DNA from: Prevotella sp.
GTDB taxonomy: Bacteria > Bacteroidota > Bacteroidia > Bacteroidales > Bacteroidaceae
Reading direction: 5' to 3'
Length of the DNA stretch: 32,946 nt
NCBI GenBank assembly: GCA_016284635.1
Contig: JAEEPF010000022.1
Coordinates: forward strand, 1 to 32,946
Shown here: in pieces, positions 29,636-29,956 of the stretch
How the letters are laid out: each line of letters opens with the position of its first letter
How positions within the stretch are numbered: position 1 is the first letter of the stretch
The notes under the pieces: model-generated
Database searches by the model: none
Told to the model about the DNA's origin: nothing
What the model saw: the letters and a program-made list of their open reading frames with translations, nothing else
Translations under genes and position numbers: made by a program

Positions 29636-29701
29636 CTTCTACTTTTCTTCTACTTTACTTCTACTAACCTTCTACTAATCCTCTACTATCCCTCTACTAA
29701 C
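29636..29701 (-). repeat. 11-bp tandem array, left arm (6 units)
   Basis: CTTCTACTTTT CTTCTACTTTA CTTCTACTAAC CTTCTACTAAT CCTCTACTATC CCTCTACTAAC; exact 11-bp period. Confidence 0.95.
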
Positions 29702-29746
29702 TGGCTACCTTATCTCGACAAACAGGAAGCCATGGGCACATACTAT

Positions 29747-29827
29747 ATTCCCACTGTGGGAATGTTCTGTTCCCAGGCTGGGAACACCATATTCCCAGTA
29801 TGGGAACATTTCTTCCATCTGATGGAA
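29747..29827. repeat. Four phased palindromes (TTCCCA-n3-TGGGAA type)
   Basis: ATTCCCACTGTGGGAAT (29747-29763), GTTCCCAGGCTGGGAAC (29769-29785), TTCCCAGTATGGGAA (29792-29806), TTCCATCTGATGGAA (29813-29827). Centres at 29755, 29777, 29799, 29820. Confidence 0.95.
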
Positions 29828-29879
29828 ATCATGAATCTTGCACGTCACTTAAGGACAATACCACGCCTTCTTCCTATGT

Positions 29880-29956
29880 GTAGATGATTGGTAGAGGAAA
29901 GGTAGAAGGAAAGTAGAGGTAAAGTAGAAGGAAAGTAGAAGGAAAGTAGAAGTAAA
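29880..29956 (+). repeat. 11-bp tandem array, right arm (7 units, inverted relative to left arm)
   Basis: GTAGATGATTG GTAGAGGAAAG GTAGAAGGAAA GTAGAGGTAAA GTAGAAGGAAA GTAGAAGGAAA GTAGAAGTAAA; core GTAGAAG is the reverse complement of the left-arm core CTTCTAC. Confidence 0.95.

What the first reader, a model, noticed from the sequence alone, without database searches (positions are those of the whole stretch)
29636..29956. Inverted 11-bp tandem arrays flanking four helically phased palindromes in an ORF-poor 1-kb gap
Seen directly: six exact 11-bp units of CTTCTAC-N4 (29636-29701), then 178 bp of spacer, then seven exact 11-bp units of GTAGARG-N4 (29880-29956), which is the reverse complement family. 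The spacer holds four palindromes with centres 22, 22 and 21 bp apart, about two helical turns, so all lie on one DNA face. Three share TTCCCA/TGGGAA half-sites. This is not explained by any ORF. Inference: an iteron/operator-like nucleoprotein site such as a replication origin, the control region of a degraded mobile element, an integration or termination site, or a nucleoid-protein locus.
Basis: partly seen in the sequence, partly recalled or inferred. Interest (0 to 1): 0.9.

Follow-up and report, generated by a model that had tools for sequence, protein, structure and literature searches.

The report
Orphan VirE-type origin with iteron arrays
This stretch of non-coding DNA in a Prevotella genome is an orphan copy of a control region, probably a private replication origin, that normally sits next to a dispersed primase-helicase gene; many related genomes carry such regions, and each version of the gene has its own matching set of 11-base sites.

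Summary
Six CYTCTAC-N4 units (29636-29701) and seven GTAGADG-N4 units (29880-29956) face each other across 178 bp holding palindromes centred at 29755, 29777, 29799 and 29820. The array score is 13; 120 shuffled controls reached at most 5.

It is not unique: four array loci occur in this genome, and such arrays occur in 17 of 200 sampled congeners. Intact copies sit directly upstream of a VirE/VapE gene (PF08800 plus PF05272; sequence match to the VapE-like structure 7pds). VirE genes of other subfamilies carry the same layout with a different 11-bp unit, and unit similarity tracks VirE divergence (Mantel rho -0.82). All 23 intact copies checked have a Bacteroidetes-type -7 box; only 1 of 12 orphans keeps it in place. 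The window copy has no virE and no box, yet all 13 unit cores are exact.

Best reading: an orphan iteron-type origin/control region of a VirE unit, organised like SaPI/PICI origins (two iteron sets flanking a core). Origin function and VirE binding are inferred, not shown. No empty site, integrase or transposase was found. Novelty: new variant of a known kind.

The parts
29559..29565 (-). Outer unit on the A side (CCTCTAC; reads GTAGAGG on the minus strand), 7x11 bp from the left array; in intact copies it lies in the virE 5' leader
   Evidence: A-side distance 77-79 in most copies that have this side
29566..29635 (-). A arm with decayed virE-type promoter; the -7 box counterpart is at about 29587-29594 (TAACATAG on the minus strand instead of TAnnTTTG)
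   Evidence: box present in 23/23 virE-bearing copies, absent here
29636..29701 (-). Left iteron array, six 11-bp units (CYTCTAC-N4 on the plus strand)
   Evidence: unit cores 93-95% identical to four other copies, N4 spacers 46-67%
29702..29747 (.). Left part of the core (TTATCTCGACAAACAGGAAGCC...), alignable in other copies
29748..29762 (.). Palindrome 1 TTCCCACTGTGGGAA, centre 29755
   Evidence: half-sites 97-100% identical in four other copies
29770..29784 (.). Palindrome 2 TTCCCAGGCTGGGAA, centre 29777
29792..29806 (.). Palindrome 3 TTCCCAGTATGGGAA, centre 29799
29813..29827 (.). Palindrome 4 TTCCATCTGATGGAA, centre 29820; degenerate in other copies
29828..29879 (.). Right part of the core with the motif AAGGACAAYACNACGCCTTC, shared by copies in this and related genomes
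29880..29956 (+). Right iteron array, seven 11-bp units (GTAGADG-N4)
29957..30000 (+). B arm (A+T-rich; no promoter in any copy seen)
30001..30007 (+). Outer unit on the B side (GTAGAGG), 5x11 bp from the last array unit
   Evidence: B-side distance 54-56 in most copies, 66-67 in a few

Best explanation
The block at about 29559-30007 is an orphan copy of the non-coding control region that, in intact copies, lies immediately upstream of a VirE/VapE-family primase-helicase gene and is shared by a dispersed unit ([HU-HIG or DUF6078 gene] <- control region -> virE). Shown by sequence: the layout (outer unit, arm, inverted array of about 5-7 eleven-bp units, core of palindromes spaced by multiples of 11/22 bp, mirror array, promoter arm, outer unit, virE), its recurrence with a different unit for each VirE subfamily, and loss of virE and of the promoter box in the window copy. 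Inferred: the 11-bp units are iterons bound by the C-terminal winged-helix-like domain of the cognate VirE; each array loads one helicase hexamer in opposite orientation, the A+T-rich arms melt, and VirE bound to the array and outer unit also represses its own promoter, which lies between them. The region would thus be a replicon origin plus autoregulatory operator of the SaPI/PICI type. The window copy has lost its gene but keeps intact sites, which cognate VirE proteins encoded elsewhere in the genome could still bind in trans.
For: Own-genome copy C304 has the same core and arrays and an adjacent virE reading frame (to the contig end), 88% identical to the query VirE. In 22 mapped contexts 8 array pairs have virE directly at the A side; two orphans keep only the first 30-40 codons of virE. 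Upstream regions of 47 non-redundant virE genes: base autocorrelation peaks at lags 11, 22, 33, 44 (0.348, 0.364, 0.310, 0.322 against about 0.28), absent downstream; most score above every shuffle. Unit sequences differ by subfamily (GTAGAGG, GTAGGAG, GTAGGACTT, ATGTAGGCT, AGTGAAGG, GTGTATG, ATGGTGGTT) yet agree between both arrays of a locus; unit similarity against VirE distance rho -0.82, with the C-terminus the most diverged part. Within the element, unit cores (93-95%) and palindrome half-sites (97-100%) are conserved while N4 spacers (46-67%) and arms (64-74%) are not. VirE has a VapE domain and matches PDB 7pds 'similar to D. nodosus vapE' at E=4.7e-8; Walker A and B motifs are intact; the C-terminal model (pLDDT 78) has winged-helix topology. 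Papers: PICI origins always show two iteron sets flanking an AT-rich region (PMC6092414); [quoted passage not shown] SaPI5 Rep is a primase-helicase (PMC7581432). Promoter box: 23/23 with virE, 1/12 orphans.
Against: No binding or replication was tested. Co-inheritance of linked sequences alone would give part of the Mantel correlation. SaPI origins lie 3' of rep; this lies 5' of virE. The core is only 54% A+T (arms 71-72%). The primase motif I reads hhhEhN, not hhhDhD/E, in nearly all family members aligned, so priming activity is uncertain. No extrachromosomal form was found: no close relative in plasmids, phages or viral contigs. Fold matches of the C-terminus are weak (best E 0.1).
Confidence: 0.68

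Rival explanations
1. Operator only: the arrays are binding sites of VirE, or of a regulator co-inherited with it, that control the virE promoter; nothing replicates from here.
For: The right array ends just upstream of the virE promoter and the outer unit lies in the leader, with 11-bp phase kept across the promoter. The primase motif is degenerate.
Against: A second, mirror-image array lies 200-300 bp away on the side without a promoter and is kept in all subfamilies; orphans keep the arrays although the promoter box is gone; the linked gene is a replicative-type helicase.
Confidence: 0.2
2. MITE-like non-autonomous transposon: the outer units are terminal inverted repeats and the block moves by a transposase acting in trans.
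For: Inverted terminal units TTTACCTCTACnAAA / TTTAGTAGAGGYARA; several copies per genome at unrelated sites; sharp B-side boundary in five copies of one genome.
Against: No target-site duplication was evident on inspection and no array-flanked transposase gene was found; several 'solo' copies carry a remnant of the virE 5' end, so they look like deletion products of a longer unit. Copies with virE extend beyond the would-be terminus to the virE stop codon.
Confidence: 0.1
3. Structured RNA or long hairpin: the two arrays pair with each other in a transcript or cruciform.
For: The arms are 79-84% complementary.
Against: Only unit cores are complementary; the N4 spacers agree no better in the hairpin register (0.60) than in all pairings (0.53). 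No Rfam match. The units change together by VirE subfamily, as protein sites do.
Confidence: 0.02

Closest known systems
SaPI / PICI replication origins with Rep (pri-rep) initiators
   Same: Two sets of short direct repeats (iterons) flanking a central region, next to a gene for a helicase-initiator; the VirE protein matches PDB 7pds ('similar to D. nodosus vapE'). PMC6092414 reports two iteron sets flanking an AT-rich region; PMC7581432 reports iteron recognition by the C-terminal domain.
   Different: Here the region is 5' of the gene, not 3'; the core holds helically phased palindromes; no recurrent integrase, repressor or packaging gene nearby; many units per genome; orphan copies without the gene; host Bacteroidota; AEP motif I altered.
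SCCmec Cch2 origin (PMC7581432)
   Same: A SaPI5-Rep-like helicase next to an intergenic region with direct repeats that its C-terminal domain binds.
   Different: Only three iterons were found there and the origin is downstream of the gene; here there are two inverted arrays of about 5-7 units upstream.
BrickBuilt MITE of Porphyromonas gingivalis (PMC4596501)
   Same: Intergenic dispersed Bacteroidales element with inner tandem repeats and inverted ends.
   Different: 23-bp tandem repeat without spacers, IS-like terminal inverted repeats, no link to virE; its repeat lies inside rather than as two inverted arrays.
PINSR 188-bp repeat of Prevotella intermedia (PMC4755523)
   Same: Dispersed intergenic repeat in Prevotella.
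   Different: 188 bp, about 180 copies, reported without terminal inverted repeats and only in the P. intermedia/nigrescens group; its sequence could not be compared here.

Membership tests
Iteron-type replicon origin | Tandem direct repeats at helical spacing | tested here: met
   13 exact units at 11 bp; score 13 against shuffled maximum 5
Iteron-type replicon origin | Adjacent cognate initiator gene | tested here: not met
   Met in the family (8 of 22 contexts, 23 promoter-bearing virE copies), not met in the window copy, which has no virE; cognate-type virE sequences lie on other contigs
Iteron-type replicon origin | Initiator binds the repeats and replication starts there | not testable with these tools
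   needs binding and replication assays
SaPI/PICI element | Two sets of iterons flanking a core, with Rep/VapE initiator | tested here: met
   for the family of intact copies
SaPI/PICI element | Core between the iterons is AT-rich | tested here: inconclusive
   core 54% A+T, arms 71-72%, window 48%
SaPI/PICI element | Integrase and attachment sites, divergent master repressor, packaging/interference genes | tested here: not met
   only HU-HIG and DUF6078 genes recur next to virE as recognisable unit partners
MITE | Terminal inverted repeats | tested here: met
   outer units inverted at both ends, though copies with virE extend past one of them
MITE | Target-site duplication | tested here: inconclusive
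   none seen by eye at the window flanks or in the G095 copies; not tested systematically
MITE | Cognate transposase with the same ends | tested here: inconclusive
   no transposase family recurred between or beside array pairs; one copy abuts an IS3-like element
Structured RNA | Pairing maintained along the whole helix | tested here: not met
   spacers not complementary beyond background; no Rfam match

The most novel reading that the evidence does not exclude
VirE units are a class of chromosomal selfish replicons without integrase or transposase: each carries a private origin whose iteron specificity diverges together with its own initiator, they disperse with one end exactly at the virE stop codon, and orphan origins such as the window copy are retained and acted on in trans by VirE proteins encoded elsewhere in the genome.
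Probability: 0.3. Interest if true: 0.85.

Novelty: new variant of a known kind. Interest (0 to 1): 0.68.

Why it matters
VirE/VapE genes are abundant in Bacteroidales (2997 relatives with E <= 1e-10 among 8000 scored candidates; 17 matches in this genome) and are mostly annotated as hypothetical. This gives them a concrete, testable cis site: a phased double iteron array whose sequence code changes with the protein. If right, it explains an unexplained class of repeats in Prevotella, gives a natural series for reading the protein-DNA code of this initiator family (many protein variants, each with its own site), and supplies candidate orthogonal origins for gut and rumen Bacteroidota. Orphan sites that keep exact units after losing gene and promoter raise the question of what maintains them.

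Tried and rejected
Chromosomal oriC/dif or a nucleoid site: rejected, since the element is multi-copy at unrelated places and linked to virE. RNA: no Rfam match and no register-specific spacer complementarity. Coding origin: no gene covers it. Plasmid or phage origin: the window element has no match in the plasmid collection; plasmid and phage collections hold only VirE relatives below 60% identity, and several plasmid records look like chromosomal pieces; the viral-contig scan with VirE gave no relative and the 11 array-pattern hits there show no inverted partner array or palindromes. Empty site for a virE unit via the NUDIX neighbour of L207-L209: no synteny in 30 loci, so no answer. Empty site for the window copy: the flanking solute-binding-protein gene is found in relatives but without shared context. 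Full-length VirE model: too poor to use (pLDDT 48). Literature for a VirE-linked repeat in Bacteroidetes: nothing found; PINSR and BrickBuilt are different repeats.

Full report
Observation. The arrays and palindromes are present as described, with small corrections. The left array has six units (four CTTCTAC, two CCTCTAC), the right array seven (one GTAGATG, six GTAGARG), all exact in the core at 11-bp spacing. Four palindromes have centres 22, 22 and 21 bp apart. One more unit lies outside each array, still in 11-bp phase: 29559-29565 (7x11) and 30001-30007 (5x11). A detector for inverted 11-bp arrays scores the window 13; 120 dinucleotide-preserving shuffles of homologous regions give at most 5.

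It is a repeated element. In the own genome (3.67 Mb, 304 contigs) three or more GTAGANG units in tandem occur at four places and the reversed control pattern nowhere. Copies on contigs C304 and C132 share arrays, palindromes and the flanking core sequence. Arrays of at least four units occur in 17 of 200 congeneric genomes. The palindrome pair TTCCCAN3TGGGAA-N7-TTCCCAN3TGGGAA occurs in 87 of 399 congeneric genomes, with 77 occurrences in one genome and none for the reversed control; it is partly an independent repeat.

What the intact form is. In 22 mapped contexts, 8 array pairs are followed at once, on the A side, by a gene for a protein of about 710-740 aa with a BT4734-like N-terminal domain (PF08800, an archaeo-eukaryotic-primase-type family per PMC5862659) and a VapE-like domain (PF05272). 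It matches PDB 7pds, 'similar to D. nodosus vapE', with E=4.7e-8. In C304 of the own genome the virE frame runs to the contig end; close virE sequences also lie on C115, C39 and C19. Two orphan arrays keep only the first 30-40 codons of virE and two more keep a few bases of its start. The window copy keeps none that I can recognise.

The same layout with other sequences. The upstream regions of VirE genes of other subfamilies (65-81% identity and some lower) have the same plan with a different unit. Pooled over 47 non-redundant genes, base autocorrelation peaks at 11, 22, 33 and 44 bp; the regions downstream of the genes show only a 3-bp coding signal. Most copies above about 50% VirE identity exceed all shuffles; genes below about 45% identity do not with this detector. 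Unit similarity falls with VirE distance (Mantel rho -0.82, no permutation of 500 as extreme), and the C-terminal 80 residues are the most diverged part of the protein. Linkage alone could give part of that correlation; what it does not easily explain is that two inverted arrays 200-300 bp apart carry the same changed unit in each locus. Palindromes in the cores are also phased: centre distances cluster at 22, 44, 65-66, 11 and 33 bp, with 125 palindromes upstream against 23 downstream. Bacteroides and Parabacteroides VirE loci show 22-bp-spaced palindromes of other sequence (L228, L233).

Constraint in the window copy. Against four other copies, unit cores are 93-95% identical and palindrome half-sites 97-100%, while the N4 spacers are 46-67% and the arms 64-74%. 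A Bacteroidetes-type -7 box (TAnnTTYG) is present upstream of virE in 23 of 23 intact copies but at the matching place in only 1 of 12 orphans; in the window it reads TAACATAG. The window copy has therefore lost gene and promoter but not its sites. Whether the sites are actively maintained or the loss is recent cannot be told from one genome.

The unit that disperses. Copies 89-96% identical over the region from a divergent HU-HIG gene (PF18291) through the control region to virE lose all similarity within a few bases of the virE stop codon and at a sharp point beyond the HU gene. Other units have a DUF6078 gene in that place. Related species share some insertion sites (L207-L209), others differ. 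No integrase or transposase recurs, and I found no empty site. How the unit moves is open.

Mechanism proposed. [quoted passage not shown] The VirE C-terminus is predicted as a winged-helix-like fold (pLDDT 78; fold matches are weak, best E 0.1). Arrays of roughly 5-7 units on each side would suit one hexamer each, facing each other. I therefore infer that VirE binds the units, melts the A+T-rich arms and represses its own promoter, which lies between the array and the outer unit. Steps shown: anatomy, linkage, co-variation, constraint, decay of the promoter. Steps inferred: binding, melting, replication, repression.

Weak points. Nothing was tested for binding or replication. The region lies 5' of the gene, unlike SaPI origins. 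The core is not A+T-rich (54%; arms 71-72%). The primase motif I reads hhhEhN instead of hhhDhD/E in nearly all members aligned, so the protein may not prime; Walker motifs are intact. No extrachromosomal form was found. An operator-only role is the main rival.

Verdict. A real, functional-looking element, not previously described in the papers I could search. It works most likely like a SaPI/PICI origin, but it is not filed as a PICI because the integrase and regulator features were not met.

Noticed in passing
L086, L089, L091, L093, L094, L097, L101, L104, L107; window 29748-29806: The TTCCCAN3TGGGAA triplet (about 66 bp) also occurs alone across the genus; 9 of 29 sampled copies lie inside long open frames without breaking them, reminiscent of Rickettsia palindromic elements (from memory). 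Random positions in the same loci fall inside such frames more often (279 of 600), so coding copies are under-represented but tolerated.
   Followed up: partly
window 30137-30365: A stretch ending in an inverted repeat (ACGAGCCAG...CTGGCTCGT) recurs in several congeneric genomes at places not shared with the left flanking gene; probably another repeat or gene remnant.
   Followed up: partly
window 30382-30815 and 31650-31753: A small lipoprotein-like gene has 84-88% identical relatives in other genomes and a second place in this one (C285); its signal-peptide region is also similar to the neighbouring gene at 31650-31753.
   Followed up: no
L023 about 4026-4170 (contig C79): One array of the family abuts an IS3-like insertion and lacks its partner array, suggesting disruption by the insertion sequence.
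   Followed up: partly
VirE residues about 91-98 (L195 numbering): The expected AEP primase motif I (hhhDhD/E) reads hhhEhN in nearly all Prevotella, Bacteroides and Parabacteroides members aligned, although the helicase Walker motifs are intact.
   Followed up: partly
L201, L202, L214, L217 upstream of virE: A divergent HU-HIG domain gene is a recurrent partner of virE units (11 loci), replaced by DUF6078 in 10 others.
   Followed up: partly
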